The notes under the pieces: generated by a model | What the model was told of the DNA's origin: nothing | What the model saw: only the letters and a program-made list of their open reading frames with translations | The model's database searches: none | NCBI GenBank assembly: GCA_026417315.1 | Contig: JAOADM010000013.1 | Location: 1 to 33,440 of the forward strand | Reading direction: 5' to 3' | Source: Limisphaera sp. | GTDB taxonomy: Bacteria > Verrucomicrobiota > Verrucomicrobiia > Limisphaerales > Limisphaeraceae | DNA length: 33,440 nucleotides | Shown: piece by piece, positions 466 to 16,800 of the stretch | How positions within the stretch are numbered: the first letter of the stretch is position 1 | How the letters are laid out: the number at the start of each line of letters is the position of its first letter | Program-made: the position numbers and the translations under genes

Positions 466-689
466 CGAGTCCCGGAAAACGGCAGTTTGCCCGGCCCTGA
501 TGAAGTCCCACGGTCGCCCACCGAAGCGCCGTCCAAGGATTCGGGACCTTTTGCCATGCCGCGTCCGGTCTCCTCGCCGCGAGAGGCGAAGCCTCTGGGA
601 TGAAAACGCTCGATCTGCCCACCCGTCAGCCCCTTCGAACAAGCCTTCCGCAGCATCGAGTCCGCGGGGACGCAGCCGGCGGGCCGCGA

Positions 690-1388: not shown

Positions 1389-1751
1389 GGCGTCACCCTA
1401 GACCGGGGTTGGGGTGGCGACAAGCTCGGTGTGGGTCCAGTCGTCCTCCAGAGTGCATTTCAGTGTTGTACAATCTCCTTGGCCTCGAAAACCGGACGTG
1501 CAGCAACCGGGTCACAGGCTGGAACCGGGTTTCTTCACGCCGGGTCGGTTCAGACGTTCAAAAAGGGAAATCAGGCCGGGCCGGACCCGCTCAATTCATG
1601 CGTTGGACCTCCCCGCAAGGTCCGCAGAATCTCGGACGTCCCTGGCGCGGGAAGGCCATTGGAAACGGCGCCTCCCTGGGATTCCCGCATCCGGTGCGCA
1701 AAACCTGAAATGCGCGCTCGCGTTGTAACCTGATCCCGCCTACCCACCCAC

Positions 1752-1992
1752 GCGCCAAAGGCGCATCCATTCAATAGCCCCGGGCAACGTCCCGGGAACT
1801 CGCGCGCCCCCAAACCCAACCGCGCCCTGAAAGGGCGCAACCCGGGAACCACCCTCGCAAGGGCCGCACCTGTCCCACCGAATGCCGCCCCATTCAGCGA
1901 ACGACCATCGCGCCGTTCCGGTGGCCCAGGGCGTTGCCTGGGCTTGTGAATTCGCACTGCGTTGGGGCGGACACGCGACGCGCTGAAGGCGC
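1752..1992. repeat. Cluster of short interspersed palindromes
   Basis: Five small palindromes fall within 240 bases: GCGCC-AAA-GGCGC at 1752-1764, CCCGGG-CAACGT-CCCGGG at 1779-1796, GCGCCC-TGAAA-GGGCGC at 1822-1838, GCCCAGG-GCGTTG-CCTGGGC at 1924-1943, and GCGC-TGAAG-GCGC at 1980-1992. Loops of the AAA/TGAAA/TGAAG type alternate with CAACGT/GCGTTG-type loops, so this looks like one repeat unit present about twice in diverged form. I recall similar intergenic words (a run of CCCGGGCAACGTCCCGGG type) from other Verrucomicrobiota and Planctomycetota genomes. No transposase is nearby. Confidence 0.5.
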
Positions 1993-2397
1993 GAAACCCT
2001 CCCGCCCCTGGATGGGTATGGTGGGAACGAGTCCGCGGGGGCGGGTTGAACCTTGGCCGCGGCAGAACCCAAAGCAATGAAGGAGAGCTGGCCCTGGACG
2101 CCACCGACCCCCTCAGGCCTTTCCCCGGCATGGAAAAGTGAAGGTCCCATACATGCCGGTTGGGCACCGAAGCGTTTCCGGAAGGACACCCGTGGGAAAT
2201 CAACCACCCGAAATAATGTCCAAGAGCCCGTGCCCCGTCCCGGGCTTGGACCCAACAGCATCCATGGCCCCGCCGGGCTCCCGGCATTCGAAACCGCTGC
2301 GCCTGCATCCATGCTACTTGCCCGGCAGCGGGGTCCGCGCCCCAGCGTCCAAAAGACCACGGCAACCGCGTGCCCGGCAGGCGCTTAAAGCTTCGTT

Positions 2398-2430
2398 CGC
2401 AAATTGGCGATAAAAAAACGCAAACTGGCG
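2398..2430 (+). promoter_or_regulatory. Paired 12-base direct repeats, possible operator
   Basis: CGCAAATTGGCG (2398-2409) and CGCAAACTGGCG (2419-2430) differ at one base. Their starts are 21 bases apart, i.e. two helical turns, with a seven-A run between them. They lie just upstream of an inverted repeat and a weak promoter match in front of the PEP-CTERM gene, which is where an activator dimer would sit. No regulator is identifiable. Confidence 0.35.
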
Positions 2431-2432
2431 TT

Positions 2433-2465
2433 GTTGGAATTCCGTGCTCTCGTCACAATTCCAAC
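2433..2465 (+). promoter_or_regulatory. Inverted repeat with overlapping weak promoter
   Basis: GTTGGAATT (2433-2441) and AATTCCAAC (2457-2465) form a perfect 9-base inverted repeat with a 15-base centre. A poor sigma70-like pair lies over it: TTGTTG at 2431-2436 and CACAAT at 2454-2459, 17 bases apart. The gene start is about 95 bases downstream. The arrangement suggests an operator over a promoter, but a cruciform or chance palindrome is possible. Confidence 0.3.
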
Positions 2466-2557
2466 GTTGGCAGTGGGGTCCGGAGCAGTGTTCCGTCGCC
2501 GGCCCATCGGATCCGCGCACGGGAAAGCGTAGTACGAACCGGGCGAGAATCACAGCC

Positions 2558-3412
2558 ATGAACAAGCTCGAAATGCTGGTCATCGCGGGGGCCCTGGCAT
2601 GCGCCACGGCCCGGGCAGCCACGATCGCTCACTGGGATTTCGAAGGCGGCACGCCGGGAGCCTCGATGGCTCAGGGGGGAAGCGGCGGAGTGCCCGCGGT
2701 GCCGGATCTGTCCGGCAACGGCTACACGATGTACGCTTGGGACGATTACTGGGGCCCGGAGTGGTCTGCCCTGGGAGACACGCCCACCGGAGCGGGACTC
2801 AGCTCCCAGCACTCCGGGCATGATGACGGGTATGTGTTTGCGCCCGGCCTGGTCAACTGGACTCCGCTCACCTGGACCATCGAGCTTTCGGTCAAACTCA
2901 ACAGCCTGGCGGGTTGGAATACGATGATCGGTCGGGACGGCTTCACCGGCGTGTCCGGCGAGGTGGAAGCCGCGTTCTATTTCCAGAACAACGGGATTGA
3001 CGACCGTTTCCGGCTCAACTTCTCCACGATGGGGGGCCAGCGGTATATTTTGGACTCCGACTTCGTGCCGGTGGCCGGCCGATGGTACCACTTGGCAGCC
3101 GTGAGCGACGGCTCCACGCTGCAGATGTGGGCGGACAAGCTGGATGGCAACGGCTTCCAACTGGTGGGCTCGCTGTCCCTGAATCCTGCCAATGACAACC
3201 GGCTGCGCGCCACGGGCACTTGGACATTCGGGCGGGGTTGGTGGAACGGAAATTTCGTCGATCACATCAACGGCAATCTCGACAACATCCGGTTCAGCGA
3301 TGTGGCACTGACACCGGCCCAGTTCATCCAGGTCCCCGAGCCATCGGTTTTGACGCTTTTGGGACTGGGCGGCCTGACGCTGTTCGTCAGGGTCCGACGG
3401 TCTCAAACCTGA
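2558..3412 (+). CDS. LamG-like domain protein with PEP-CTERM sorting signal
   Basis: A 284-residue secreted protein. The ATG at 2558 is chosen because a signal peptide starts there (MNKLEMLVIAGALACATARA, cleavage near ARAATIAHWDF); the frame is open upstream to 2444 but that part has no signal character. Residues about 22-250 form a concanavalin A/LamG-like beta sandwich (IAHWDFEGG at the start, WTIELSVKLNSLAGWNTMIG, RWYHLAAVSDGSTLQMWADK, GNLDNIRFSDVALTPAQF near the end). The C-terminus is a textbook PEP-CTERM tail: VPEPS, a hydrophobic helix (LTLLGLGGLTLFV) and basic RVRR. Such proteins are recognised by exosortase and delivered to the cell surface or extracellular matrix. The gene is monocistronic, with control-like repeats upstream and a strong terminator after it. 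Confidence 0.85.
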   Translation: MNKLEMLVIAGALACATARAATIAHWDFEGGTPGASMAQGGSGGVPAVPDLSGNGYTMYAWDDYWGPEWSALGDTPTGAGLSSQHSGHDDGYVFAPGLVNWTPLTWTIELSVKLNSLAGWNTMIGRDGFTGVSGEVEAAFYFQNNGIDDRFRLNFSTMGGQRYILDSDFVPVAGRWYHLAAVSDGSTLQMWADKLDGNGFQLVGSLSLNPANDNRLRATGTWTFGRGWWNGNFVDHINGNLDNIRFSDVALTPAQFIQVPEPSVLTLLGLGGLTLFVRVRRSQT

Positions 3413-3441
3413 GGCGAGGTCTCGTGAGTTGGTTGAGGACG

Positions 3442-3474
3442 CGAAGGCAGGCTTCGGCCTGCCTTCGTTTTGTT
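3442..3474 (+). terminator. Intrinsic terminator after the PEP-CTERM gene
   Basis: CGAAGGCAGGC (3442-3452), a TTCG tetraloop and GCCTGCCTTCG (3457-3467) make a perfect 11-base-pair stem followed by TTTTGTT. It ends transcription about 30 bases after the PEP-CTERM stop and separates it from the GH51 gene. Confidence 0.9.
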
Positions 3475-3518
3475 AAGGGTGGCATGGGGAACGATCGAGA
3501 AAGTCGTTGGGATTCGAC

Positions 3519-3526
3519 GAGGTGAT
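3519..3526 (+). promoter_or_regulatory. Strong Shine-Dalgarno for the GH51 gene
   Basis: GAGGTGAT is an exact match to the complement of the usual 16S rRNA 3' tail and ends five bases before the ATG at 3532. It fixes that start and implies efficient translation. Confidence 0.75.
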
Positions 3527-3531
3527 GGAAG

Positions 3532-6027
3532 ATGAAACGCGCGTTGGGCATTTCGGCTTGGGCATTGGCCATCTTGGGAGTCGTTGGGAACGCCGTGAGC
3601 GCCCCCGTGCAACTGACCGTGCAAGTGGACCGCCCCGGATCCCCGGTGGCCCCGACGATGTGGGGGATCTTCTTCGAGGACATCAATCTCGGCGCCGACG
3701 GGGGATTGTATGCGGAGTTGGTCAAGAACCGGGGATTCGAGTTTCCCGAACCCATGATGGGGTGGTTCCTGTTGCGCACCAGCCACGGTCGGGGCGACGT
3801 GCGGATCCTGACCGACGCGCCGTTCGATCCGGCCAATCCCCACTACGCGCGAATCGAGTCGCGCGCGCCCACGGCCATGGGTTTGTCCAACGAGGGATTT
3901 CGCGGGATGGGCTTCCGCGGGGGCGAAGATTATGACCTGAGCCTGCAGGTTCGCCGGATTTCCGGCAATCCCCGGCTGCTGATCGAGCTGGTCAACGAAT
4001 GGGGCGAGACCCTGGCGGAAGCGCGGCTGGGCGACCTGCCGAGCCACTGGGAGAAGCGATCCGTGAGTCTTCGACCCCGCAGCACCACCGCACGGGGCCG
4101 ACTCAACGTCCTGGTCGAGGGTGGCGGCACGGTGGACGTGGACATGGTCTCGCTGTTCCCCCGGAAGACCTGGAAAAACCGGCCCGGGGGCCTGCGGGCC
4201 GATCTCGTCCAGATGCTGGCCGATCTCCAGCCCGGCTTCCTGCGGTTCCCCGGCGGTTGCATCGTCGAAGGCAGCGAGCTGGACAAGCGCTATCAGTGGA
4301 AGACCACCATCGGTCCGATCGAACAACGCCGGCTGCTCATCAATCGCTGGAACTACGAGTTCAAGCATCGCCCAACCCCGGACTACTACCAGAGTTTTGG
4401 CCTGGGCTTTTTCGAGTATTTCCAGCTGGCCGAGGACCTGGGGGCCGAACCGTTGCCGATCCTCAATTGTGGCATGGCCTGCCAGTTCAACAGCGGGGAA
4501 CTGGTGCCCCTGGATCAGTTGGACCCGTACATCCAGGACGCACTGGATTTGATCGAGTTCGCCAACGGGCCGGTCACCAGTCCGTGGGGGGCGCGCCGGG
4601 CCGCCATGGGGCATCCGGAGCCGTTCGGGTTGAAGTACCTGGGCATCGGAAACGAGCAATGGGGTCCGCAGTACTTGGAACGTTATGCGGCCTTCGCACG
4701 CGTGCTCAAAGCCCGCCACCCCGAAATCACGCTGGTTTCCAGTGCCGGTCCCTCGCCCGATGACGAACGTTTCGATTTCCTCTGGCCGCGCCTGGCCGAA
4801 ATGAAGGCGGAGATCGTGGACCAGCATTGCTACGCGAATCCCATCTGGTTCTTCACCAGTGCCGACCGTTTCGATCGCTACGACCCGGCAGGGCCCAAGG
4901 TGTTCTTCGGGGAGTACGCCGCGCAGAGCGACCGCATCGTCAGCGTGCACAACCGCAACAATTGGGAGTGCGCGCTGGCCGAGGCCGCCTTCATGACCGG
5001 CATGGAACGCAACGCCGCAGTGGTGGTCATGGCCGCCTACGCGCCGTTGTTCGGCCACGTGGATGGCTGGCAGTGGCGGCCCAACCTCATCTGGTTCGAC
5101 AACCTGCGCGTCTTTGGCACGCCCAGCTACTATGTGCAGCAGGCGTTCGCCCGGAACCGCGGCGACCGCGTGCTGCCGGTGCGGCTCGAAGGTCCCACGG
5201 CCGCGCCCGCCCTGGCCCGCGGCGGCATCGGCCTCGGCACCTACCGGACGGCTGCCGAGTTCAAAGACCTGGTCGTCCGACGCGGCGAGGAGATTCTCTA
5301 TCGCGCCGACTTCTCGACCCGGCCGGAGGGATGGCGCTGGCCGGACGCCGGCCGATGGGAGGTCGCCGACGGTGCCCTGCGTCAAGCCGACCCGCGCAGC
5401 ATCAGCACGGCCGCGGTGGGCGGACCGGACTGGACCGAGTACACCCTGGAGCTGAAGGCCCGCAAGGTCAGTGGCGCCGAAGGGTTTCTCATCATGTTCC
5501 GCGACGCCTGGCAGGGCACGCGCGTGCAATGGAATCTCGGTGGGTGGGGCAACACCCGGCACGGCATTCAGTCGTGGCTCGGCGGACAGGAACGGCTGGT
5601 CACCCAGGTCCCGGGTTCCATCGAAACGGGGCGCTGGTATGACATCCGCATCGAACTTCGCGGGCCCCGGGTGGATTGTTATCTCGATGGCCAGCGCATT
5701 CATTCGGTGGAGATTCCGGTTCCTGTCCAGGACGGTTTCTACGCCACGGCGGCATGGGAAGAATCCGGCCGCGAGGTGATCCTCAAGCTGGTCAACGCCG
5801 CCCCGTACGAGCGCACGGTGGCCGTGCAACTGGCGGGCGTAAAGGCGGTGCGGCCGGGCGCTCGCGGGATCCTGTTGCGGGGGGAGACGCTTGCAGACGA
5901 AAACGACTTCGATCACCCCACCCGCGTGGCACCCCGTGACTGGCCCGTCCGGGTCGAGGCACCTGCGACCTCCCTGTCCGTGCCCTCGCATGCCCTGCTG
6001 ATCGTTCGCGTGCCAGTGGAACGCTGA
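3532..6027 (+). CDS. Secreted GH51 alpha-L-arabinofuranosidase
   Basis: An 831-residue enzyme that removes arabinofuranosyl side chains from arabinoxylan, arabinan or similar polysaccharide. It has a signal peptide (residues 1-24, ending VSA). Next comes TMWGIFFEDINLGADGGLYAEL, the family opening, and a CBM-like stretch at about 75-210. The (beta/alpha)8 barrel runs from about 225 to 560 with LRFPGGCIVEG, acid/base Glu375 in GIGNEQWG and nucleophile Glu461 in VFFGEYAAQ. Residues about 585-735 look like an additional concanavalin-A/LamG-type domain (YTLELKARKVSGAEGFLIMF, RWYDIRIELRGPRVDCYLDG), and the barrel's partner beta domain resumes at the C-terminus. Length is typical of the long Bacteroidota/Verrucomicrobiota type. 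The start is fixed by the Shine-Dalgarno at 3519-3526. No arabinose-use genes sit beside it. Confidence 0.92.
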   Translation: MKRALGISAWALAILGVVGNAVSAPVQLTVQVDRPGSPVAPTMWGIFFEDINLGADGGLYAELVKNRGFEFPEPMMGWFLLRTSHGRGDVRILTDAPFDPANPHYARIESRAPTAMGLSNEGFRGMGFRGGEDYDLSLQVRRISGNPRLLIELVNEWGETLAEARLGDLPSHWEKRSVSLRPRSTTARGRLNVLVEGGGTVDVDMVSLFPRKTWKNRPGGLRADLVQMLADLQPGFLRFPGGCIVEGSELDKRYQWKTTIGPIEQRRLLINRWNYEFKHRPTPDYYQSFGLGFFEYFQLAEDLGAEPLPILNCGMACQFNSGELVPLDQLDPYIQDALDLIEFANGPVTSPWGARRAAMGHPEPFGLKYLGIGNEQWGPQYLERYAAFARVLKARHPEITLVSSAGPSPDDERFDFLWPRLAEMKAEIVDQHCYANPIWFFTSADRFDRYDPAGPKVFFGEYAAQSDRIVSVHNRNNWECALAEAAFMTGMERNAAVVVMAAYAPLFGHVDGWQWRPNLIWFDNLRVFGTPSYYVQQAFARNRGDRVLPVRLEGPTAAPALARGGIGLGTYRTAAEFKDLVVRRGEEILYRADFSTRPEGWRWPDAGRWEVADGALRQADPRSISTAAVGGPDWTEYTLELKARKVSGAEGFLIMFRDAWQGTRVQWNLGGWGNTRHGIQSWLGGQERLVTQVPGSIETGRWYDIRIELRGPRVDCYLDGQRIHSVEIPVPVQDGFYATAAWEESGREVILKLVNAAPYERTVAVQLAGVKAVRPGARGILLRGETLADENDFDHPTRVAPRDWPVRVEAPATSLSVPSHALLIVRVPVER

Positions 6028-7125
6028 CCTCTCCCACGACACGCGCGCCGCAGCCGGATTCGCAGCTCGAGAGGTGACGTCCTCCATGCGTCTCTTCAGG
6101 CCCGACGGGATCCTCCGAAGCGCGCCATCGAAATTGCGGTGCCCCAATCGGCATGTCCCGACCCGGCGTGCCGGGCCGCCGGTGGCAACCTCACACACGG
6201 TACGGCTCATCCTGGAAACGACGCTTGTGGGGGACTGGCCCGAGGGGCGGCGGGCTGAATCTGACTTCGGGCATGCTGTTGCCACCTTCTGCGCGCCGGC
6301 TCACGCGCAAGGTGAGTCCAAGCCCCGACGGTCTCAACTTCGGCCACCACCCGCCCGGTGCAACGGCGCGCGCCCCGCCGGACCTGCACACGCGCCGCAT
6401 CCATGGCGAATGAGACTCACACGCGCCGCGGACGCCGCCGGGGCACGGGCCCGGTCTCGGCTGACTGCCGGCCACCGCGAGTTCGGTCCGCGACTGGGGC
6501 GCCGATTCTGATGCAGCGCGTCCGGCCGCAACGCCGAGCAAGGCGGTGAGGTACGGAGGAAGGCTGCTTTCGGCGATGGGGCGGGAAGCGCGGCACGCGG
6601 GCCGGAGGACGGTGGGGTGGACCCGCTCGCACGCGGAAGCGGGTCGGCATCAGCGGCTTTTAACCGAGGTGAGCCTGTTCTTGAGCGGGTTGCGGAATCG
6701 TGTCGAGCTGTTGACGGCATGGCAGGGCGGGGAGCGGATTGGGGAGCAGATTTTGACGCCGTTGAAGCTGTGGGTGGCGGCGAGCTGGTCGTGGTGCGGG
6801 CCACGGGCGCCGTAACCGGGGTGGCGGTGGCCGCGAGGATTTCAGATTCTGCACCGCGCCGGGTTGCAAATCGCCTGGAACGCCCCACCGCTGCCCCTTC
6901 AACGGCCGGCTTTGGGCGCAACCGCTGCTGTCGTCGGATTGAGAATCCGCTCGGATGCTTTGGGCGCCGGATCCAAACCGCCGCCAGCAGCTCGGGAGGG
7001 CGACAACAAAACCGGGCTCCGCCTGCCCGGCGCTTTACCCGGCGGGCGGTGGTCCTAGAATGAATGCGCATGTCATCGACCATCCCAGAGGTGCCGGGCG
7101 GGAAGGCGCGTCGCCCGTTCCGCGC
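6028..7125. other. Long intergenic region before mutL
   Basis: About 1.1 kb with no credible gene. Short frames exist on both strands but none has a domain, a plausible ribosome site or a hydrophobic/polar pattern typical of protein. The part from 6655 to 6790 is less GC-rich than its surroundings and reads on the plus strand as LFLSGLRNRVELLTAWQ-like residues, which could be a decayed gene or an interspersed repeat. The probable mutL promoter lies at the right end. Confidence 0.55.
7034..7061 (+). promoter_or_regulatory. Candidate mutL promoter
   Basis: TTTACC (7034-7039) and TAGAAT (7056-7061) are 16 bases apart and match sigma70 boxes at four and five of six positions. Transcription would start near 7068, which argues against the upstream in-frame ATG at 7060 being the start of MutL and leaves a leader of about 58 bases. 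Confidence 0.45.
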
Positions 7126-9201
7126 ATGAACCGGATTCGTCTGTTACCGGAGACGCTGGCCAACCAGATCGCGGCCGGCGAAGTCATCGAGCGACCGGCC
7201 AGCGTGGTGAAAGAACTCATTGAAAACGCGCTGGACGCCGACGCACGCCGCATTGTGGTGGAGATTCAGGCCGGAGGCCGGAGTCTGATCCGCGTCTCCG
7301 ACGACGGCATCGGGATGAGCCGGGACGACGCGCTGTTGTGTCTCGAGCGGCATGCCACCAGCAAAATCCGGTCGCTGGAGGACCTGATGGCGATTCGGAC
7401 GCTGGGGTTCCGGGGAGAGGCGCTCCCCAGCATCGCCAGCGTGAGCCGGCTGACCCTGACCACGCGGGAACGCGACAGTGACCAACCCGAGGGAACGCAA
7501 GTGCTGGTGACGGGGGGACGGATCGTCGATGTGCGAGCCGCGGGCACGGCGCCGGGCACCACCGTGGAGGTCCGCCAGCTTTTCTTCAACGTGCCCGCGC
7601 GGCGCAAATTCCTGCGCAGCGACGAGACCGAGGCTGCGCACGTGCAACACTGCGTGCTGCTGGCGGCACTGGCCTGGCCGGAGGTGGCCTTTACCTTCAT
7701 CAAGGACGGACGGACCCTCTGGCAATTGCCGGCGGTGCCCTGCGGCCCGGATCCGCAAACCCGGCGGGCGGCCCTGCGGGAACGGCTCCGTGCCCTTTAC
7801 GGCACGGGCGAAGCTCTTCTCGAGGTCGAGTTCGCCGCGCCTTTGGACGAGCGTCCCTCTGCCAGCCCGGCTGAAGTCGTGTCGAGTCCCGAGCCCTCTG
7901 CGTTGTTGCGCGTGTGGGGATTCATTGGCGCTCCGGGCGTGTCGCGGGCCACTCGGGCCGATCAACACCTGTTTGTCAATCGCCGGCCCGTCGAGAGCCG
8001 CACCCTCAACCACGCGCTGTTGGAAGGCTACCACACCGCCCTGATGAAGGGGCGCTACCCGGTCTGCTGTCTGTTTCTTGAGCTGGACCCGGCCGCGGTG
8101 GACGTAAACATTCACCCGGCCAAACGGGAGGTGAAGTTTCACCGCGAATGGGCCGTGCGCCATGCGGTGACTCAGGCGGTCCGGCAAACCCTGCTTGCGT
8201 TTCACTCGGCCCCGGGCCGGGCAGTGGGGCAGGCGACGACCTCGGGGGTTTCCACCCCCTCGCTCCCTGTCAAACGAGAAGAATCGGCTTTGCCCGGTCT
8301 GAAGACGGATCCGCAAACCCCCACCCCGTCGCAAAGCGCGGAGGCCGGTCCCGGAGTGGGGAGCTTCGGTTTCGACGTGGCCATGCCTGGCGCGACGTCG
8401 ACCACCCGGATGGCTCCGGCTCGGGCTTCAGCTCCGGCACAACCGGGTGCGACCGTTGCGGTGCCCTCGGTGTTTTCTCCGGCGCCCGTCTCCGGACCCG
8501 GGGCCGGTGCCGAGCCCTCGGCCCCATCTTCGACCGTCGTTACCCCGCCGCGGCCGGAAAGGGTTGCCCCGGGCGGTTCGCCGGCCGGGCCCGACCTTCA
8601 GCCCGTGCCCTTGCTGGAGGTGCCGCTGCGATTTCTTGGGGTTTTGGGCCGACTGTACGTGCTGTTCGAGTCCGATCGCGGGCTGGTGTTGATGGACCAA
8701 CATGCGGCGCATGAACGGGTGTTGTTCGAAGAGATGTTGGACCGCCTCGAGCGGGAGGGGCAGGCCCCGTCGCAGAAACTGTTGTTGCCCGAAGCGGTCG
8801 AGCTGCCCGCACGCGATGCCGCCTTTCTGCGCGAGCAACTCGGCGTGTTGAACCGGCTCGGCGTCGGCTTGAGCGAGTTCGGCACCCGCACCTTCCTGCT
8901 CGATGCCCTGCCCCCCTTTGTGAAAGTGCCGGATCCGCGTCGGTTTTTGCTCGATCTGGTGGACGAGCTGCGGGTGTCCGGCCAGGAACTCAATGTACTG
9001 CGGCTGGGCGAGCCCGTGGTCGCCAAAACGGTCTGCCGCCACGCCGTCAAGGCGCGTGACCCCCTGGAGGAGCCGGAACTGCGGAACCTGTTGGAGAGTC
9101 TGCGCCGCTGTCGCATGCCGTACACTTGCCCCCACGGACGGCCCACGCTCATCGAGCTGAGCTATCGCGAGTTGGAGCGGAAGTTCGGTCGGGTGACCTG
9201 A
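7126..9201 (+). CDS. mutL: DNA mismatch repair protein MutL (endonuclease type)
   Basis: A 691-residue MutL that couples MutS mismatch recognition to strand removal. The N-terminal GHKL ATPase is clear: Glu30 and Asn34 in VVKELIENALDADA, DDGIGM, and GFRGEALPSIASVSRL. The transducer domain follows (QHLFVNRRPVES, VDVNIHPAKREVKFH). Residues about 365-505 are a Pro/Ala-rich linker. The C-terminal domain carries DQHAAHERVLFEE, matching the DQHA(x)2E(x)4E metal site, plus VCRHAVKA and CPHGRP. It is therefore a nicking MutL like that of Bacillus, not the MutH-dependent Escherichia coli type. The start at 7126 (MNRIRLLPETLANQIAAGEV) matches the family; an ATG at 7060 would add 22 residues of unconserved sequence. 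It is convergent with the prenyltransferase gene. Confidence 0.95.
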   Translation: MNRIRLLPETLANQIAAGEVIERPASVVKELIENALDADARRIVVEIQAGGRSLIRVSDDGIGMSRDDALLCLERHATSKIRSLEDLMAIRTLGFRGEALPSIASVSRLTLTTRERDSDQPEGTQVLVTGGRIVDVRAAGTAPGTTVEVRQLFFNVPARRKFLRSDETEAAHVQHCVLLAALAWPEVAFTFIKDGRTLWQLPAVPCGPDPQTRRAALRERLRALYGTGEALLEVEFAAPLDERPSASPAEVVSSPEPSALLRVWGFIGAPGVSRATRADQHLFVNRRPVESRTLNHALLEGYHTALMKGRYPVCCLFLELDPAAVDVNIHPAKREVKFHREWAVRHAVTQAVRQTLLAFHSAPGRAVGQATTSGVSTPSLPVKREESALPGLKTDPQTPTPSQSAEAGPGVGSFGFDVAMPGATSTTRMAPARASAPAQPGATVAVPSVFSPAPVSGPGAGAEPSAPSSTVVTPPRPERVAPGGSPAGPDLQPVPLLEVPLRFLGVLGRLYVLFESDRGLVLMDQHAAHERVLFEEMLDRLEREGQAPSQKLLLPEAVELPARDAAFLREQLGVLNRLGVGLSEFGTRTFLLDALPPFVKVPDPRRFLLDLVDELRVSGQELNVLRLGEPVVAKTVCRHAVKARDPLEEPELRNLLESLRRCRMPYTCPHGRPTLIELSYRELERKFGRVT

Positions 9202-9252
9202 GGCCGGCTGCGCCGCCCGGGGCAGGAACCCGGAGCCGGGCCGGGGGATGGG

Positions 9253-10182
9253 TCAATGATCCCGGCGCAGAAGGAACTCGGCCAGGGCATGCAGGGCTGC
9301 GGCCTTCCGGCCGAAAGGCTCCAGCGCCGCAAAGGCGCGTCGAGTGAGAGTCTGCGCGATCTGGCGCGACCGTTCGAGTCCCACCAGCGCCGGATAGGTC
9401 GCCTTGCGGGCTTTCACATCCTTGCCGGCGGTCTTGCCCAGCTTCTCGCTCGTTTGCGTGACATCCAGGATGTCGTCGATCACCTGAAAGGCGAGCCCGA
9501 CATGGTATCCGAACCGGGTGAGCGCCTCCAACTGCCGCGCTGTACAGTTGGCGCTCATGCCGCCGAGCCGCACCGCGCAACAGAGCAGGGCCGAGGTTTT
9601 TCGCTCGTGGATGTACCGGAGCTGCCGCAACGGGATCTGTTTGCCTTCGCTCTCCAGATCGGCCACCTGCCCGGCGATCAACTGGCGCGAGCCTGCGGCC
9701 TCGGCCAGCTCGCGGATGATCCGCTCCGGAGGGTAGCGGGGCCAGCCGCGACACTGCGCGGCGATCTCGAAGGCCAGCGTCAGGAGCGCATCCCCCGCCA
9801 GCACGGCGATGCCTTCGCCGAACACCTTGTGACAGGTGGGGCGGCCCCGCCGGAAGTCGTCATTGTCCATGGCCGGGAGATCGTCGTGCACCAGCGAATA
9901 GGTGTGGATGCACTCGATGGCGCAGGCCAACGGCAGCGCCTCCTCCGGATCGCCCCCGCACGCCTCGGCCGCCGCCAGGCAGAGGATGGGCCGAATCCGC
10001 TTGCCGCCGGCGAACACCGAGTACCGCATGGCCCGGTGAATCGTGCTCGGCCGGGTGCTTTGCGGGGGTAAGAACCGGTGCAACCCGCGGTCCACCCACC
10101 GGCTTCGTTCGGTCAGATACCGTTGCAGATCGAAATCCCCGTGAGTGTTGGGGGGAGTCGATTGCGCATCCCGTGCAGCCAT
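9253..10182 (-). CDS. ispA: Polyprenyl diphosphate synthase (farnesyl/geranylgeranyl type)
   Basis: A 309-residue trans-isoprenyl diphosphate synthase that condenses isopentenyl diphosphate with allylic diphosphates, giving farnesyl (or geranylgeranyl) diphosphate for quinone, undecaprenyl and hopanoid or carotenoid synthesis. Seen directly: GGKRIRP (substrate Lys/Arg), the first aspartate-rich motif D100-D101-x-x-x-x-D106 in HDDLPAMDND, RRGRPTCHKVFGEGIAVLAGD, and the second motif D236-D237-x-x-D240 in FQVIDDILDVTQTSEKLGKTAGKD. The two-residue insertion in the first motif (DDxxxxD) is the bacterial FPP-synthase arrangement. Chain length cannot be settled by eye, so ispA is a best-fit symbol. 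The 51-base gap to mutL, which converges on it, holds no clear terminator. Confidence 0.88.
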   Translation of the reverse strand: MAARDAQSTPPNTHGDFDLQRYLTERSRWVDRGLHRFLPPQSTRPSTIHRAMRYSVFAGGKRIRPILCLAAAEACGGDPEEALPLACAIECIHTYSLVHDDLPAMDNDDFRRGRPTCHKVFGEGIAVLAGDALLTLAFEIAAQCRGWPRYPPERIIRELAEAAGSRQLIAGQVADLESEGKQIPLRQLRYIHERKTSALLCCAVRLGGMSANCTARQLEALTRFGYHVGLAFQVIDDILDVTQTSEKLGKTAGKDVKARKATYPALVGLERSRQIAQTLTRRAFAALEPFGRKAAALHALAEFLLRRDH

Positions 10183-10511
10183 GCAGGTTCAGTAAACGAG
10201 CCCGACCCTGCCGGGGCAAGCCGAATCGGGGAAACACGGTCGCCCTCGGAACGTCGTTTGCGCCGGGTCAAAACCGTGAGTGCCCCGGACCTCTTCCATG
10301 CCGGCCCCGGGCATGCAGACACTCCGGATTCTCCGGGAAGATGCTGTCCGACCGGGAGCCGCGAGTGGGATCCAGCGGTGGCCCGCCGACACGCTGGCAG
10401 GTTGCGTCGCGGCTGGTCTTGTGGCATTCATTAGCTGCCATGCAAACGCCGAACCAGAATCCGTCCCGGGCAACGACCAAGCCCTGTGCCTCCTCTCCCG
10501 CCGAACCTCGA
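10183..10511. other. Divergent intergenic region between ispA and the aldo/keto reductase
   Basis: The frame of the plus-strand reductase is open through this stretch back to 10173, so part of it could be coding if translation starts early (in-frame ATG at 10440). Nothing protein-like is seen before 10512, and no clear promoter boxes were found for either gene. Confidence 0.4.
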
Positions 10512-11423
10512 ATGAGACGTCGCGAGTTTTTGCGGCGCACCGCGTTGGCGGCTGGACTGGTGGCCCTCACCGGCCCGTGGCTGCGGGCCGAGGAATCACA
10601 ACCGCGCCGTTTCGATCCCTTCGAAACCGTGACGCTGGGCAAGTCAGGGATTCGCACCTCGCGGTTTTCCCTGGGCACCGGCATGCGCGGCGGGAATCGC
10701 CAGTCCAACCACACCCGCATGGGCCGGGAAAAACTTCAGGCCCTGATTCGCGAGTCCTACGAACGCGGCACCCGTTTGTTCGATCTGGCCGACCTGTACG
10801 GCACGCATCCGTACCTCATTCCGGCCCTGGAGGGCGTGCCGCGGGACCGCTATCAGATCGTCACCAAGATCTGGTTCCAGCCCGGCGGCATTCCGGAACC
10901 CGAACGACCCGATGCCGATGTGGTGGTGGAGCGGTTCCTCCGGGAGCTCAAAACCGATTACATCGACCTGGTCCTGCTGCACTGCGTAACCTCGCCGAAC
11001 TGGCCCAGGGAACTGAGCAAACAAATGGAGATCCTGGCCCGGCTGAAGGAGAAGGGCATCATTCGTGCCCACGGCGTCTCCTGCCATTCGCTGGAGGCAT
11101 TGAAGGCAGCCGCCGAGGAGCCGTGGGTGGATTCCGTGCACGCGCGCATCAACCCCTTCCAGATGAGCATGGACGGTCCGCCCGATGAGGTGGTGCCGGT
11201 GTTGCGCAAAATCAAAGCCGCGGGCAAGGGCATCGTGGGCATGAAGCTGGTGGGCGAAGGCCGGTTGCGGAACGACCCGGACAAGCGGGATGAATCGATC
11301 CGGTTTGTGCTGGGCCTGGGGTGCGTGGACGTGATGACCGTCGGTTGCGAAACCATTCAGGAGGTGGACGACTTCACTGAACGGGTGCGCAAGGTGCCGA
11401 GGCCGGCTCAAGCGGCGGCGTAA
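10512..11423 (+). CDS. Aldo/keto reductase with Tat signal peptide
   Basis: A 303-residue NAD(P)H-dependent oxidoreductase-family protein. The start at 10512 puts a twin-arginine signal at the very N-terminus (MRRREFLRRTALAAGLVALT), so the enzyme is probably folded with its cofactor in the cytoplasm and exported to the periplasm. An in-frame ATG at 10440 would add 24 residues; neither start has a good Shine-Dalgarno. The aldo/keto reductase tetrad is complete: Asp91 and Tyr96 in FDLADLYG, Lys119 in IVTKIWF and His157 in LVLLHCVT. GIIRAHGVSCHS and the C-terminal VDVMTVGCET match the family. It lacks the C-terminal Cys motif of ferredoxin-like fusions. Tat-exported members are common in Verrucomicrobiota and Planctomycetota; substrate unknown. 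Confidence 0.86.
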   Translation: MRRREFLRRTALAAGLVALTGPWLRAEESQPRRFDPFETVTLGKSGIRTSRFSLGTGMRGGNRQSNHTRMGREKLQALIRESYERGTRLFDLADLYGTHPYLIPALEGVPRDRYQIVTKIWFQPGGIPEPERPDADVVVERFLRELKTDYIDLVLLHCVTSPNWPRELSKQMEILARLKEKGIIRAHGVSCHSLEALKAAAEEPWVDSVHARINPFQMSMDGPPDEVVPVLRKIKAAGKGIVGMKLVGEGRLRNDPDKRDESIRFVLGLGCVDVMTVGCETIQEVDDFTERVRKVPRPAQAAA

Positions 11424-11829
11424 CGTTCAACTTGTCTGCCCGCGCCACCCGGCGTGGAGCGCCCGTGGAGCGCCCACGCTCACGGTCCGAGCTGCGGCCC
11501 ACGGGCCTCCGGCACCCACCGGACAGGCGGAAAGGGGGCGTTCGGTGTCCGGCCGGCGCCCGGCGACGGCTTTTTCGGGGCCTCATGCCGGCGGGCAGGC
11601 GGAGCCGTTCCGGCCCAAGGGCGCCCACATGGACAACCCGCACGCGAGGAAGCCCCGGTGTGTTTGCCCGAGTTCCCCCGGGGCGGCCGAGGGGTTGCCT
11701 GCGTTTGGCAGTGGCCAAAACGAACAGGCATTGGTAGGTTATCGTGCCATGGATGAGCGAACGGCAGGCCAGGGCAACGCCGTTCGCGGCAACCCGGAGA
11801 ACGCGTGGCGACCGCCGCGCCCGTGAGCC
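11424..11829. other. Intergenic region before the WXG100/FtsK cluster
   Basis: About 400 bases with no gene, terminator or clear promoter seen. The control region of the four-gene cluster downstream should lie here, but no boxes stand out. Confidence 0.45.
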
Positions 11830-12102
11830 ATGCCACAAGCCATCATCGATCCGGAGGAAGTGCGCAGGTTCGCCGAGGAGCTGAAACGGTTCAACCTCGA
11901 GCTGCAGAACCGCATGTCGGCCTTGCAGGCTCGCTTCGCGGCCCTGGGCGACACCTGGCAGGATCAGGAGCACGCCAAGTTTGCCGAGGAATTCCGCGAT
12001 ACGATGAAGGTCCTGCGCCGGTTTATCGAAGCCTCCAACCGTCAGGCCCCGTTCCTCCTGCGCAAGGCCCAGCGCATCGAGGAATACCTCAAACAGCACT
12101 GA
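11830..12102 (+). CDS. WXG100-like small helical protein
   Basis: A 90-residue, all-helical protein with the size and pattern of a WXG100 (ESAT-6/YukE-type) substrate or partner: helix one at about 7-38 (VRRFAEELKRFNLELQNRMS), a turn centred on GDTWQDQ, and helix two at about 45-88. The usual Trp-x-Gly is Trp-Gln-Asp here, followed by a W-x-D-x5-F-x3-F spacing. The same spacing occurs in the 68-residue protein encoded at 12663-12869. No signal peptide, as usual for this family. First gene of a packed cluster ending in an FtsK/SpoIIIE ATPase, the motor class that exports WXG100 proteins, which supports the assignment. The change from WxG to WxD means the family call rests on size, helix pattern and context. 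Confidence 0.65.
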   Translation: MPQAIIDPEEVRRFAEELKRFNLELQNRMSALQARFAALGDTWQDQEHAKFAEEFRDTMKVLRRFIEASNRQAPFLLRKAQRIEEYLKQH

Positions 12103-12105
12103 CCC

Positions 12106-12666
12106 ATGGCAGACCAGGCCAGGGTTACCTCCCTGGAGGCCATCGAGGCCTTTCGGAATCAGATGATCCTGTTCCGCGAGCGGGCAGGGCGGGTCCTCGA
12201 CGAGGTGACCGAGCATCTCGCCCGGACGCGCAACTGGTTGGAGCAGGACCGCGCGACGCACTGGCAGCACGAGATCCGTCGCCTGCAACGGGAGCTGGAG
12301 CAGCGACAGCAGGAGCTTTTCAGCGCCCGGCTCTCGGCCTTTCGCGACACGCCGCTGGCGGAACAGGTGGCCGTCCAGCGCGCCCGCCAGGCGCTGGAAT
12401 CTGCTCAGGATCGCGCCCGCCGCGTGCGTTTCTGGCAACAGCAGTTCGAGCCCCGCGTGCAACCGCTGGCGCGGCAAATCGAGAAACTGCGCAGTCATCT
12501 CAACCAGGACCTGGCCCGTGCCCTGGCTTACCTCACCGAGATCCATCGCACCCTTGCCGCTTACGCGGAGTTGGAACCCGGTTCGGCTTCGCTCTCCCGG
12601 CCCGCCCCCGAGCCGCCTCCGGCACCTGCCACCGATCCAACCTCATCGGGACCGTCCCAGCCATGA
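12106..12666 (+). CDS. Coiled-coil protein of the WXG100/FtsK cluster
   Basis: A 186-residue protein starting three bases after the previous stop. Residues about 10-165 are almost entirely amphipathic helix rich in Glu, Gln, Arg and Leu (RRLQRELEQRQQELFSARLS, RQIEKLRSHLNQDLARALAY), typical of a long coiled coil. The last 30 residues are Pro/Ala/Ser-rich and probably disordered. There is no signal peptide or membrane segment, so it is cytoplasmic or an exported helical substrate. A W-L-E-Q-D stretch at about residue 43 may mark a distant relation to its WXG100-like neighbours. I do not recognise the family. Position suggests a chaperone, a scaffold, or a LXG-like secreted protein of the same machine. 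Its stop overlaps the next start in ATGA. Confidence 0.6.
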   Translation: MADQARVTSLEAIEAFRNQMILFRERAGRVLDEVTEHLARTRNWLEQDRATHWQHEIRRLQRELEQRQQELFSARLSAFRDTPLAEQVAVQRARQALESAQDRARRVRFWQQQFEPRVQPLARQIEKLRSHLNQDLARALAYLTEIHRTLAAYAELEPGSASLSRPAPEPPPAPATDPTSSGPSQP

Positions 12667-12869
12667 CCGGTGCACAAAATCGTCTGCTCGGCCTGCTGAA
12701 GGATTTGCAGGCTCACTGGGACCGAACCCGGGAGTGCTGGCGAGATGACAAAGCGCTCGAGTTCGAACAGCGCTTCCTCAACGAGCTGACCAGCCAGGTC
12801 AACCAAACCATCGCTGCGTTGGATACCCTGGAACGTGTGCTGCAACAAATCCGTCGCGACTGTGAATAG
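12663..12869 (+). CDS. Second small WXG100-like protein
   Basis: A 68-residue helical protein whose ATG overlaps the previous stop (ATGA), a sign of translational coupling. It reads as two helices (about 3-22 and 28-66) around a C-W-R-D turn. The spacing W-x-D-x5-F-x3-F (W26-R-D-D-K-A-L-E-F-E-Q-R-F) is identical to that in the 90-residue protein at 11830, so the two may be a pair, as ESAT-6/CFP-10 are. It is shorter than the normal 100 residues. The following ATPase gene starts inside its 3' end. Function is inferred from context only. Confidence 0.6.
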   Translation: MTGAQNRLLGLLKDLQAHWDRTRECWRDDKALEFEQRFLNELTSQVNQTIAALDTLERVLQQIRRDCE

Positions 12870-15800
12870 TCCTCTTGTGGGTACGGCCGAGACGTTGGCC
12901 CTGCTGGAGCGCCTGCGCACCACGGTGCAGGAACTGGCGCGCCAGGCGGAGCATTTGGACCGTGATCTCGGCTCGCGCAGTCACCGCGTGCGCTACCAGC
13001 GCGACGAGGCACTCCGCGTGGCCCGCGAACAATACGAGGCCGCCCGCGCCCGCCTGGAGGCCCACGCCCGCGAACGGCGTCTGCACCTGGAGCGGACCCA
13101 TCAACATCGGGAACGCCGCATCCTTCAGGCGCTGGAGAAGGAACGCCAGCGCCTGAAGGACCGCATCGAGGCCGAAGCGGGTCGCGCCACATTCGAAATC
13201 CAACGGGCCCAGCTCGATGCCGATCGTCGCCGCGACGAGGAGCTGGCCTCCGCACGACAAGCCCATCAGGCTCTCCTGGAGCGGATGACCGAGGCTCAGG
13301 CCCGGTACCAACAGCGTCTTCATCTGGTCCAGCTCCTTTTCAGCCCCTACCCCGGTCTGGCGCGCCAATGCCTGACGGCCGGGCCCACCCCGCCCACGTC
13401 CGCAGTCGAAGGCCTGGACGCGGTCAGCTTTTGGTCGGGTTTCCAGGGACGTCTGGCAGGAGTTGACGCGCTGGTCCGGCAAACGCGTCGTTTGATTCTG
13501 CCCGTGCTCTTCCGCTACTGCCCGTGGTGGCTGGGGCTTTTGCTGGGCATTGTGCTGCCGGCCCTGGGGATCTTCGGCGTGGCGCGGCGCGGGCCGGCAG
13601 AGCTGAGCCCTGTGCACTGGGCGGTTTGGAGCGGCGCCCTCGTGTTCTGGTTGGGCTTGTACGGACTGAGCCGGGGCTTGGCCCGGCCGCGTGCCGAGAA
13701 AATGGCGCGCGCGCTGGCCGAGTTGGACGGATGGCTGGAACAATTCGCGCAATCGGCTGAAACCGCCCATCAGTCGGAGCTTGCATCCATCCAGGCCAGG
13801 CATGCCCGGACCGTGGAGGTGTTGAACGAGCGATGGCGTCAGCTCCGGAAGCAGACCCAACAACAGCAGCAGGAGGCCCTCGAGGCCCTCGAAGCCCGGG
13901 GCCGGCGCGCCCAACAGCGCAACGACACGCTGACCCGTACGCGACTGCAGCAACTGGAAGCAGACGTGGCCCGTCAGCAGGCCCGGATGGAATCCGAGTA
14001 CGAGCAACAACGCCAGTCCCTCGAGGAGAGCACCCGGCAGCAACTCCAACGCCTGCAGCAAGCCCGTGAAACGGGCTGGAACGAGATTCGCCGGCAGTGG
14101 CACGACGTCGTTCTGCCGTTGGTCGCCCAACTGCGCGCCGCTGCGGCGGCAGCCGAAGTCGCCTTTCCGCCCTGGACCGACCCCCGTTGGTCGGACTGGA
14201 CTCCGCCGGAGGATTTCCTGCATGCCGCTCCCTACGGACACTTGGACGTGGACCTCGCCACTTTTTGCGGCGTCAATCTGGCCGACAAAGGGCTTCCTCT
14301 TCCGGAGCCCCAGCAGCTGCGTTTACCGCTGCTGCTGACCGTGCCGCACGAGGCCTCGCTTTTGTTGGAGACCGGTCAGGCCGAAACGGAGCCCGCCCTG
14401 GCCACACTGAACAATCTCATTCTTCGCCTGCTCACCAGCGCCCCACCCGGCCGCCTCGCCTTCACCATCCTGGACCCGGTGGGCCTCGGGCAGAACTTCG
14501 CCGGCATCATGCACCTGGCCGATTACGAGGACCGCCTGATCCACGGGCGCATCTGGACCCAGCCCGCCCACATCGAAGAACGGCTGGCCGAACTGAACGA
14601 ACACGTCGAGAAGGTCACCCAGATGTACCTGCGGAACGAATATGCGACCCTGGCCGAGTACAACGCCCAGGCGGGCCGGCTGGCCGAGAAGTACCATTTC
14701 CTGGTGGTGGCGCATTTTCCCGTGAATTTCTCGGATCTGGCGGTCAAGCGCCTGCAGAGCCTGGCAGCCAGCGGCCCGCGTTGCGGGGTGCATGTGCTGC
14801 TGCACTGGGACCAGCGCCGCACGCCGCCGGTGGAACTGGTGCCCGAGGAACTTCGCAAATACGCGCGCTGTCTGGTCCAACGGTCGGGGCGCTTTCTGCT
14901 GGCCGGCGCCGACCACGAGGGGCTCCGGCTGGAGCTGGAAGCGCCGCCGCCGCCCGAGATTGCCACTCCGCTGCTCCACCGCATCGGCCAAAACAGTCGG
15001 GATGCCTACCGGGTCGAAACCCCGTTTGTGGAGGCGGCCCCCTCGGAGGACCGGTACTGGTCGGGCGATGCCACCGACGAGCTGCGGGTGCCGATTGGGC
15101 GCACGGGGGCTACCAAGCTGCAATACCTCTGCCTGGGACAGGGCACCCGGCAGCACGGGCTGGTGGCGGGCAAGACCGGCTCGGGCAAGTCCACGCTGTT
15201 CCACGTCATCATCACCAACCTGGCCTTGTGGTACAGCCCGGACGAAATCGAGTTCTACCTCGTGGACTTCAAGAAGGGCGTGGAGTTCAAATGCTATGCG
15301 GCTCATCGGCTGCCGCACGCCCGCGTGGTGGCCATTGAAAGCGATCGGGAGTTCGGTCTCAGCGTGCTGCATCGCGTGGACGAGGAACTGCGCCGGCGGG
15401 GCGACCTGTTCCGCCAGCTGGGAGTTCAAGATTTGCCGGGGTACCGCCGGGCCGGGGGCCGGGAGACGCTGCCGCGCGTGTTGCTGTTGATCGACGAGTT
15501 CCAGGAGTTCTTCGTGGAGGACGATCGCATTGCCCAGAGTGCGGCCCTGTTGCTGGATCGCATCGTGCGGCAGGGCCGCGCTTTCGGGATTCATGTGTTG
15601 CTCGGTTCGCAAACCCTGGGCGGAGCCTATACGCTGGCCCGTTCGACCATGGGGCAGATGGTTGTGCGGATTGCGCTGCAATGCAACGAGGCCGACGCGC
15701 TTTTGATCATGAACGAGGACAATCCCGCGCCCCGATTGCTCAGCCGGCCGGGCGAGGCCATTTACAACGACGAGGGCGGAGCCCTGCAGGGCAACAGTCC

Positions 15801-16800
15801 CTTCCAGGTCGTCTGGCTGCCCGACCGCGAACGGGAGGAATGGTTGCGGCGCATCCGGGCCCTGGCGGAAAGCACTCCGGACCGTGCCCGGCGCTTTGCC
15901 GGCCGTGAACCGATCGTCTTCGAGGGCAACGCGCCTGCCGAGATTCGGTCAAACCGCCACCTGCGCGAGTTGTTGCATGCTCCGGCGCTGCGGCCCACGC
16001 GCGCACCCCGGCTCTGGCTGGGGGAACCCAACGCCATCAAAGGTCCCACCGAAGTCGTGTTCCGTCGCCAAAGCGGGAGTCATTTGCTCATTGTAGGGCA
16101 ACGCGACGAAACCGCGCTGGCCCTGCTTTTGCTGGCCCCGGTCATCCTCGGGGCGCAACTGCCCCGGCCGGCCGCTCGGTTCTATCTGTTCGACGCCAGT
16201 CCGCCTGACGCCCCCGAAACCCGGCTTTTCCAGCAGCTGCTGCCCCGTCTGCCGCACGCCGTACAATGGGTCCGGCCCGCGGACGCGGAAGCCGTCTTGC
16301 AGGAGTTGCTCCACGAACATCAACGTCGCACCGAAACGCTCGACCCCGCCGCCCCCGAACTGTTCCTCTTGATCCATCGCCTCCAGCACCACAAAAAACT
16401 CCGCTACGACGAGGACGCGGCGTTTGCCCTGGACAGTGAGACGTCTCTCACTCATCCCGGTCTGATCTTCGACCGACTGGTCACCCAGGGGGGAAACCTG
16501 GGATTTCACGTGCTGCTCACCTGTGACACTTACGCCAATCTGCTGCGCCAGCTCAGCCGCAAGGCGCTCGCCGAGTTCGAGCTGCGGGTCCTGTTCCAGA
16601 TGAGCGCCAACGACTCCGCCAGCCTGATCGATTCCCCGCAAGCCAACAACCTGGGGCTGCATCGGGCCCTCCTTTTCCACGGGCAGGAGGGCTGGATCGA
16701 AACGTTCCGTCCCTATGCGATGCCGGAGTCGGCCTGGTGGGAGGAGGCTCTCGAGCATTTGCATCGGTTGCATGCCGAGCCGGTGACGGTGCCGGGCTGA
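12862..16800 (+). CDS. Membrane FtsK/SpoIIIE-family ATPase, EccC/EssC-like
   Basis: A 1,312-residue motor from the GTG at 12862, which overlaps the previous gene by eight bases; GTGs at 12835 and 12877 are alternatives. Order of parts: a coiled coil (about 10-190), two membrane helices (about 218-238, LGLLLGIVLPALGIFGVA; about 251-272, WSGALVFWLGLYGLS), a second coiled coil (about 285-425), then three FtsK-like modules. Module one (about 488-690) has no Walker motifs. Module two (about 735-960) is complete: Walker A GKTGSGKST at 770-778, Walker B LLLIDEFQ with Asp878-Glu879. Module three (about 1045-1280) has a spoiled P-loop (VGQRDETAL). Two membrane helices plus three tandem ATPase modules is the EccC/EssC plan, not that of the DNA translocase FtsK, whose gamma domain is absent. 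It probably exports the small helical proteins encoded just upstream. Confidence 0.85.
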   Translation: MNSPLVGTAETLALLERLRTTVQELARQAEHLDRDLGSRSHRVRYQRDEALRVAREQYEAARARLEAHARERRLHLERTHQHRERRILQALEKERQRLKDRIEAEAGRATFEIQRAQLDADRRRDEELASARQAHQALLERMTEAQARYQQRLHLVQLLFSPYPGLARQCLTAGPTPPTSAVEGLDAVSFWSGFQGRLAGVDALVRQTRRLILPVLFRYCPWWLGLLLGIVLPALGIFGVARRGPAELSPVHWAVWSGALVFWLGLYGLSRGLARPRAEKMARALAELDGWLEQFAQSAETAHQSELASIQARHARTVEVLNERWRQLRKQTQQQQQEALEALEARGRRAQQRNDTLTRTRLQQLEADVARQQARMESEYEQQRQSLEESTRQQLQRLQQARETGWNEIRRQWHDVVLPLVAQLRAAAAAAEVAFPPWTDPRWSDWTPPEDFLHAAPYGHLDVDLATFCGVNLADKGLPLPEPQQLRLPLLLTVPHEASLLLETGQAETEPALATLNNLILRLLTSAPPGRLAFTILDPVGLGQNFAGIMHLADYEDRLIHGRIWTQPAHIEERLAELNEHVEKVTQMYLRNEYATLAEYNAQAGRLAEKYHFLVVAHFPVNFSDLAVKRLQSLAASGPRCGVHVLLHWDQRRTPPVELVPEELRKYARCLVQRSGRFLLAGADHEGLRLELEAPPPPEIATPLLHRIGQNSRDAYRVETPFVEAAPSEDRYWSGDATDELRVPIGRTGATKLQYLCLGQGTRQHGLVAGKTGSGKSTLFHVIITNLALWYSPDEIEFYLVDFKKGVEFKCYAAHRLPHARVVAIESDREFGLSVLHRVDEELRRRGDLFRQLGVQDLPGYRRAGGRETLPRVLLLIDEFQEFFVEDDRIAQSAALLLDRIVRQGRAFGIHVLLGSQTLGGAYTLARSTMGQMVVRIALQCNEADALLIMNEDNPAPRLLSRPGEAIYNDEGGALQGNSPFQVVWLPDREREEWLRRIRALAESTPDRARRFAGREPIVFEGNAPAEIRSNRHLRELLHAPALRPTRAPRLWLGEPNAIKGPTEVVFRRQSGSHLLIVGQRDETALALLLLAPVILGAQLPRPAARFYLFDASPPDAPETRLFQQLLPRLPHAVQWVRPADAEAVLQELLHEHQRRTETLDPAAPELFLLIHRLQHHKKLRYDEDAAFALDSETSLTHPGLIFDRLVTQGGNLGFHVLLTCDTYANLLRQLSRKALAEFELRVLFQMSANDSASLIDSPQANNLGLHRALLFHGQEGWIETFRPYAMPESAWWEEALEHLHRLHAEPVTVPG

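What the first reader, a model, noticed from the sequence alone, without database searches (positions are those of the whole stretch)
11830..16800. Type VII secretion-like WXG100/FtsK module in a probable diderm bacterium
Four genes packed with gaps or overlaps of a few bases encode two small helical WXG100-like proteins, a coiled-coil protein and an EccC/EssC-like membrane ATPase. That is the minimal logic of a type VII system (small helical partners plus a membrane FtsK-type motor). Well-studied systems are in Actinomycetota and Bacillota; a compact version in a Verrucomicrobiota-like genome, with no EccB/D/E or EsaA/EssA/B-like gene present, would have to cross or stop at the inner membrane by other means. 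The gene packing and motifs are seen; the secretion role is inferred.
Basis: partly seen in the sequence, partly recalled or inferred. Interest (0 to 1): 0.82.

Follow-up and report, generated by a model that had tools for sequence, protein, structure and literature searches.

The report
Verrucomicrobial four-gene WXG100/EccC-like operon
A compact set of four genes, shared in one copy by many Verrucomicrobiota (bacteria with two membranes), encodes small WXG100 proteins and a membrane motor related to the heart of the type VII secretion machine, but without the other known parts, so it looks like an old, stripped-down protein exporter whose cargo and route across the outer membrane are unknown.

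Summary
Four tightly packed genes (A 11830-12102, B 12106-12666, C 12663-12869, D ~12862-16800) encode a WXG100 protein (Pfam, above cut-off), a long helical hairpin, a second short W-x-D protein with weak WXG100 matches, and a membrane-anchored ATPase whose fold is closest to EccC/EssC rather than FtsK. In 286 genomes of the class, independent searches found A, B and D in exactly the same 48 genomes, with C between B and D. No other gene travels with them across 128 loci. The D tree follows families and the flanks are housekeeping genes, so the unit is mainly inherited vertically. Eleven carriers lack EssB (the EccB test had no working control). Related WXG100/FtsK modules on plasmids, in Helicobacter and in CoCoNuT/TerY-P loci are known from the literature; there the gene between A and the motor carries a nuclease domain and most tested motors lack transmembrane segments. 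Here B has only a disordered tail and D has membrane segments. Best reading: a minimal, toxin-free, type VII-like inner-membrane protein translocase, a new variant of a known kind. Secretion, cargo and the outer-membrane step are inferred, not shown.

The parts
11830..12102 (+). Gene A: WXG100 protein, 90 aa, W43-Q-D45 at the hairpin; closest solved structure is Helicobacter pylori HP0062
   Evidence: PF06013 E 9.7e-9 above cut-off; profile vs PDB: 3fx7/2gts HP0062 E about 1e-15, EsxB 2e-8; 90 aa in all 71 named orthologues measured, invariant W and D
12106..12666 (+). Gene B: 186 aa, long two-helix hairpin (residues 2-76, 83-156) plus variable P/S/T/A-rich tail without any toxin domain
   Evidence: AlphaFold2 model pLDDT 88.8; W44, W110 and L..Y end conserved; tails listed; one copy per genome in 48 of 286 genomes
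12663..12869 (+). Gene C: 68 aa second W-x-D protein, weak WXG100 match, nearly invariant W19, W26, D28, F34 and C-terminal D-C-E
   Evidence: TIGR03930 E 2.1e-5, PF06013 E 4.2e-3, both under cut-off; alignment of 34
12862..16800 (+). Gene D: EccC/EssC-like membrane ATPase, 1312 aa: coiled coil - TM segments - coiled coil - three FtsK/HerA-type domains, only the middle one with intact Walker motifs
   Evidence: PF01580 3.4e-32, EccCa 1.4e-32; PDB EccC/EssC by sequence and fold; invariants; TM scan
13528..13680 (+). TM-like segment(s) of D, about residues 223-272 (approximate)
   Evidence: Kyte-Doolittle scan: 106 of 107 full-length orthologues have one or two such segments here; in the window only the first passes the threshold
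15169..15192 (+). Walker A (GKTGSGKS) of the middle ATPase domain of D
   Evidence: invariant in 34 orthologues
15493..15498 (+). Walker B acidic pair (DE of LLLIDEFQEFF) of the middle ATPase domain
   Evidence: invariant in 34 orthologues

Best explanation
The four genes form one functional unit: a minimal type VII-like protein translocase in the inner membrane of Verrucomicrobiota. D is the membrane-anchored motor, with one working ATPase domain between two degenerate ones. A and C are small WXG100-type hairpins; with the long hairpin B they probably make a helical complex that D recognises. The arrangement resembles the LXG-rod-plus-two-small-partners complexes of T7SSb, but B ends in a short disordered tail instead of a toxin. 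D would move B, and perhaps A and C, across the inner membrane. Shown: the genes, their co-occurrence, single copy, conservation, domain make-up and mainly vertical inheritance. Inferred: complex formation, translocation, direction and cargo. How anything would pass the outer membrane is unknown.
For: A is WXG100 by curated model and is closest to HP0062 and EsxB. D is EccC/EssC-like by sequence and by fold: 4nh0 EccC E 2.7e-30, against 8e-12 for FtsK. TM-like segments near residues 215-275 in 106 of 107 orthologues. A, B and D in identical sets of 48 of 286 genomes. Only A, B, C and D recur across 128 loci. Gene order also kept in other classes of the phylum. In relatives on plasmids and in other Verrucomicrobiota the gene between A and the motor is a coiled coil with a C-terminal nuclease, e.g. 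WHH/colicin DNase followed by an SMI1/KNR4-type immunity-like gene in a Helicobacter plasmid, as expected of an export or delivery module.
Against: No secretion data. A lacks the YxxxD/E export motif in 71 of 71 orthologues, and B and C mostly lack it. No EssB in 11 carriers and no YukD in 10 of them. No toxin or other cargo gene is linked, and no B paralogue with a toxin tail was found in 286 genomes. Homology of B to the nuclease-bearing proteins is only suggestive (hhalign 58%), and of C to the corresponding small proteins not detectable. The B fold search was unspecific. In most nuclease-type relatives the motor lacks TM segments, so not every relative can be a membrane channel.
Confidence: 0.58

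Rival explanations
1. It is an intracellular, inner-membrane-tethered stress or defence device: D remodels or loads the A/B/C complex on the cytoplasmic side and nothing is exported. It would descend from the WXG100/FtsK cassettes found with TerY-P and CoCoNuT systems.
For: Closest relatives with nuclease domains sit beside VWA, kinase, phosphatase, CARF and helicase-like genes and most of their motors lack TM segments. PMC11090510 treats this type as an extension of a restriction system.
Against: Here there is no nuclease, VWA, kinase or defence gene nearby, the locus lies among housekeeping genes, and D is membrane-anchored. The D tree follows family lines, unlike typical defence islands. 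PADLOC gives only partial P-loop and coiled-coil matches.
Confidence: 0.22
2. The operon is a polymorphic-toxin type VII system whose toxins are encoded elsewhere in the genome and travel with A/B/C.
For: Nuclease-bearing proteins occur in the B position in relatives, and one genome (G427) has both types.
Against: No second B-like gene in any of 286 genomes and, apart from G128, no second A; toxins with an unrelated targeting domain cannot be excluded.
Confidence: 0.12
3. D is a DNA translocase (FtsK/HerA-like) and the small proteins are DNA-handling or regulatory partners.
For: FtsK/SpoIIIE domain; FtsK motor domains appear in the fold search.
Against: EccC and EssC score far better than FtsK. 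The genome has a separate FtsK-like match (L002). WXG100 partners point to type VII motors.
Confidence: 0.06

Closest known systems
Stand-alone WXG100/FtsK (mobile T7SS-like) modules; H. pylori HP0062/HP0066 'WXG100 secretion system' (PMC3482391, PMC4978471, PMC3397514)
   Same: HP0062-like WXG100 with W-x-D; YueA/EssC-like ATPase described as having three FtsK/HerA domains with only the middle one active; no other type VII part
   Different: Here B has no nuclease, a third small gene C is fixed, D has TM segments, and the unit is mainly vertically inherited in Verrucomicrobiia rather than mobile
[quoted passage not shown]
   Same: EssC-like motor with N-terminal coiled coil and only the central ATPase domain active, two WXG100-like proteins, a coiled-coil protein
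   Different: CoCoNuT version: no TM helices, coiled coil fused to a D-ExK nuclease, flanked by VWA genes; the window operon has none of these
T7SSa (ESX; EccB/C/D/E, MycP) and T7SSb (Ess/Yuk; EssA/B/C, EsaA, EsaB)
   Same: EccC/EssC-family motor plus WXG100 protein
   Different: No EssB or YukD found in the window genome, no phylum-specific membrane partner beside the operon, one intact plus two degenerate ATPase domains, W-x-D instead of W-x-G, no YxxxD/E in A
LXG effector with Lap1/Lap2 targeting partners (T7SSb; title and abstract of PMC9600955, details from own knowledge)
   Same: One long helical rod plus two small helical partners encoded together (analogy)
   Different: B lacks an LXG profile match and any toxin domain; no sequence homology shown

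Membership tests
WXG100 family (gene A) | Match to PF06013 above the gathering score; about 100 aa helical hairpin with W-x-G at the turn | tested here: met
   35.8 bits vs cut-off 27.3; PDB relatives are WXG100 hairpins. The turn is W-x-D in all 71, as reported for HP0062 (WRD, PMC3397514).
WXG100 family (gene C) | Match to a WXG100 model above its curated cut-off | tested here: inconclusive
   PF06013 17.8 bits vs 27.3; TIGR03930 24.6 bits vs 44.85; both below cut-off though E 4e-3 and 2e-5
WXG100/LXG family (gene B) | Match to a WXG100 or LXG profile | tested here: not met
   No such Pfam or NCBIfam match at E up to 10 and 1; helical hairpin with unspecific fold matches
Type VII secretion system | EccC/EssC-family membrane ATPase | tested here: met
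   below the NCBIfam equivalog cut-offs, so a relative rather than EccC or EssC itself
Type VII secretion system | EssB/YukC (T7SSb) membrane partner | tested here: not met
   PF10140 absent in 11 carrier genomes, control rang in B. subtilis
Type VII secretion system | EccB (T7SSa) membrane partner | tested here: inconclusive
   PF05108 no match in 11 genomes, but no control genome rang
Type VII secretion system | EccD, EccE, EsaA, EssA membrane partners | not tested
   No family search was run; no such gene among the window neighbours scanned and no conserved neighbour in 128 loci
Type VII secretion system | EsaB/YukD ubiquitin-like part | tested here: not met
   PF08817 in only 1 of 11 genomes, not in the window genome
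Type VII secretion system | C-terminal YxxxD/E signal on a WXG100 partner | tested here: not met
   A 0 of 71, C 5 of 67, B 8 of 72; the signal is best defined for T7SSa
Type VII secretion system | ATP-dependent export of WXG100 proteins | not testable with these tools
   needs a laboratory assay
CoCoNuT/TerY-P-associated WXG100/FtsK cassette | Nuclease-fused coiled coil, soluble motor, VWA/kinase/phosphatase neighbours | tested here: not met

The most novel reading that the evidence does not exclude
An ancient, toxin-free, four-gene type VII-like exporter inherited vertically in the diderm Verrucomicrobiota, with the helical rod B as a dedicated core substrate or envelope component, working without EccB/D/E- or EssA/B-type partners.
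Probability: 0.4. Interest if true: 0.82.

Novelty: new variant of a known kind. Interest (0 to 1): 0.62.

Why it matters
Type VII secretion is studied almost only in Actinomycetota and Bacillota. A fixed, single-copy, four-gene version in a diderm phylum would show the smallest set that evolution keeps, and would ask what a type VII motor exports when there is no toxin. Records that look like isolates carry it (for example Verrucomicrobium sp. BvORR106 and Spartobacteria bacterium LR76), so the question can be tested.

Tried and rejected
DNA translocase: EccC and EssC win in three comparisons. Chance gene packing: rejected by identical phyletic sets. Mobile element: no relative of D in viral contigs (a single-protein scan, close relatives only), no plasmid record covers 80% of D, the tree follows families. 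Known defence system: PADLOC matches are partial. B as an LXG or known fold: no profile match, and Foldseek gave only coiled coils with E above 0.08. C equals the small protein next to nuclease-type motors: hhalign found nothing. B equals the N-terminus of nuclease proteins: 58% probability, not decisive. A, B and C as one family: hhalign of A with C or B gave 15-19% probability only. A profile scan with the B alignment in viral contigs was not possible, too variable.

Full report
The window is contig C44 of a 3.79 Mb, 372-contig draft genome, 86.7% complete. The nearest named relative of D is in Limisphaera sp. SKYG106, 66% identical, so the genome is Verrucomicrobiota, class Verrucomicrobiia. 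The locus lies between an aldo/keto reductase gene (upstream of it polyprenyl synthetase and mutL) and a pseudouridine synthase gene, followed by tRNA-Gln and RNase III. The same two flanking genes border the operon in the congener (83% and 76% identity).

The four genes are real. A is a WXG100 protein by curated model. Its profile finds H. pylori HP0062 (3fx7, 2gts) first and EsxB next among solved structures. C is a shorter W-x-D protein with sub-threshold WXG100 matches and a nearly invariant C-terminal D-C-E. B is a long two-helix hairpin by AlphaFold2 with a tail that varies in length and is rich in P, S, T and A. D has coiled coils around TM-like segments and three FtsK/HerA-type domains; only the middle one keeps the Walker motifs, which are invariant in 34 orthologues. 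The three-domain reading of the first and last domains rests on the fold match to EccC and on the published description of this motor type. Over its 873-residue C-terminal part the AlphaFold2 model (pLDDT 85) matches EccC of Thermomonospora (E 2.7e-30) and EssC well before FtsK. TM-scores over the whole length are low (0.36), which may mean that the domains are placed differently.

Conservation. In 286 genomes of the class, D was found in 49 (one, G060, only a distant type), B in 49 (one, G089, a marginal match) and A in 49 (one, G165, a partial copy without D). After removing those three the sets are the same 48 genomes, with one copy of each gene, except that G128 has a second A beside a second, distant motor and that D is split or cut in G259 and G280. 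C lies between B and D in the fetched loci; in L042 and L059 extra DNA separates C from D. Clustering of all ORFs around 128 loci gave A in 118, B in 120, C in 122 and D in 128 loci, and no other gene family in more than about ten (I read the other frequent clusters as shadow frames of A-D from their positions). The D tree needs 20 changes of family label where 19 is the minimum and shuffles need 35, so inheritance is mainly vertical with many losses. In the phylum sample, 23 of 388 genomes had a match; loci from other classes again show A-B-C-D, some with a shorter B.

Relatives with nucleases. tblastn of D in plasmids led to Rhodococcus, Deinococcus, Caballeronia and Helicobacter plasmids. 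Each has an A-like WXG100 protein (E 9e-13 to 2e-26). In Helicobacter the protein after A is a coiled coil ending in a WHH/colicin-DNase domain, followed by an SMI1/KNR4 gene as annotated. In Caballeronia, and in Verrucomicrobiota genomes G427 and G416, it ends in a shared domain with a D...ExK look (read by eye; no Pfam match). G427 carries both types. The nuclease-type or related motors in L164, L165, L201 and L203 have no TM-like segment by the same scan (L163 and L166 each have one weak segment), whereas 106 of 107 window-type motors do.

Interpretation. The combination of a WXG100 protein, a second small W-x-D protein, a helical rod and an EccC/EssC-like membrane motor, kept together in one copy, is best explained as a minimal type VII-like translocase that lost, or never had, a toxin. 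What is shown is anatomy and evolution; export, cargo and the outer-membrane step are inferred. The strongest points against are the missing export motif, the missing partners, and the intracellular defence setting of the nuclease-type relatives.

Novelty. Stand-alone WXG100/EssC-like modules in diderms are known, so this is not a new kind of system. I found no paper describing this fixed, toxin-free, membrane-anchored four-gene form, but the library holds only open-licence papers, and one key source (Anantharaman et al. 2012) was seen only through citations.

Noticed in passing
L203 (G427:C1:1715000-1734000), 5666-11778: VWA - WXG100 - coiled coil with nuclease-like end - 125 aa protein - 82 aa protein - soluble EssC-like motor; the same genome also has the window-type operon.
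   Followed up: partly
L201 (G416:C131), 6789-11556: Nuclease-type module without an obvious gene between the nuclease protein and the small protein before the motor.
   Followed up: partly
L082 (G060:C12), 7200-11268 coordinates: A different arrangement: two WXG100-like genes, a multi-TM coiled-coil protein and an 836 aa FtsK-type protein, as if D were split in two.
   Followed up: no
L081 (G128:C41), 247-4955 coordinates: Motor - two WXG100-like genes - 543 aa protein with a possible nuclease part before the coiled coil (by eye) - 147 aa protein; reverse domain order.
   Followed up: no
L210 (G165:C10), 9540-9890: Partial A gene without B or D in that genome, possibly a relic of loss.
   Followed up: no
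G199:C14:115991-116227: A YukD (PF08817) match over cut-off in a genome that carries the operon elsewhere.
   Followed up: no
L042 and L059: Extra DNA between C and D: in L042 a gene pair resembling HicB/HicA toxin-antitoxin (by eye) and a 267 aa ORF; in L059 about 600 bp without an obvious gene.
   Followed up: no
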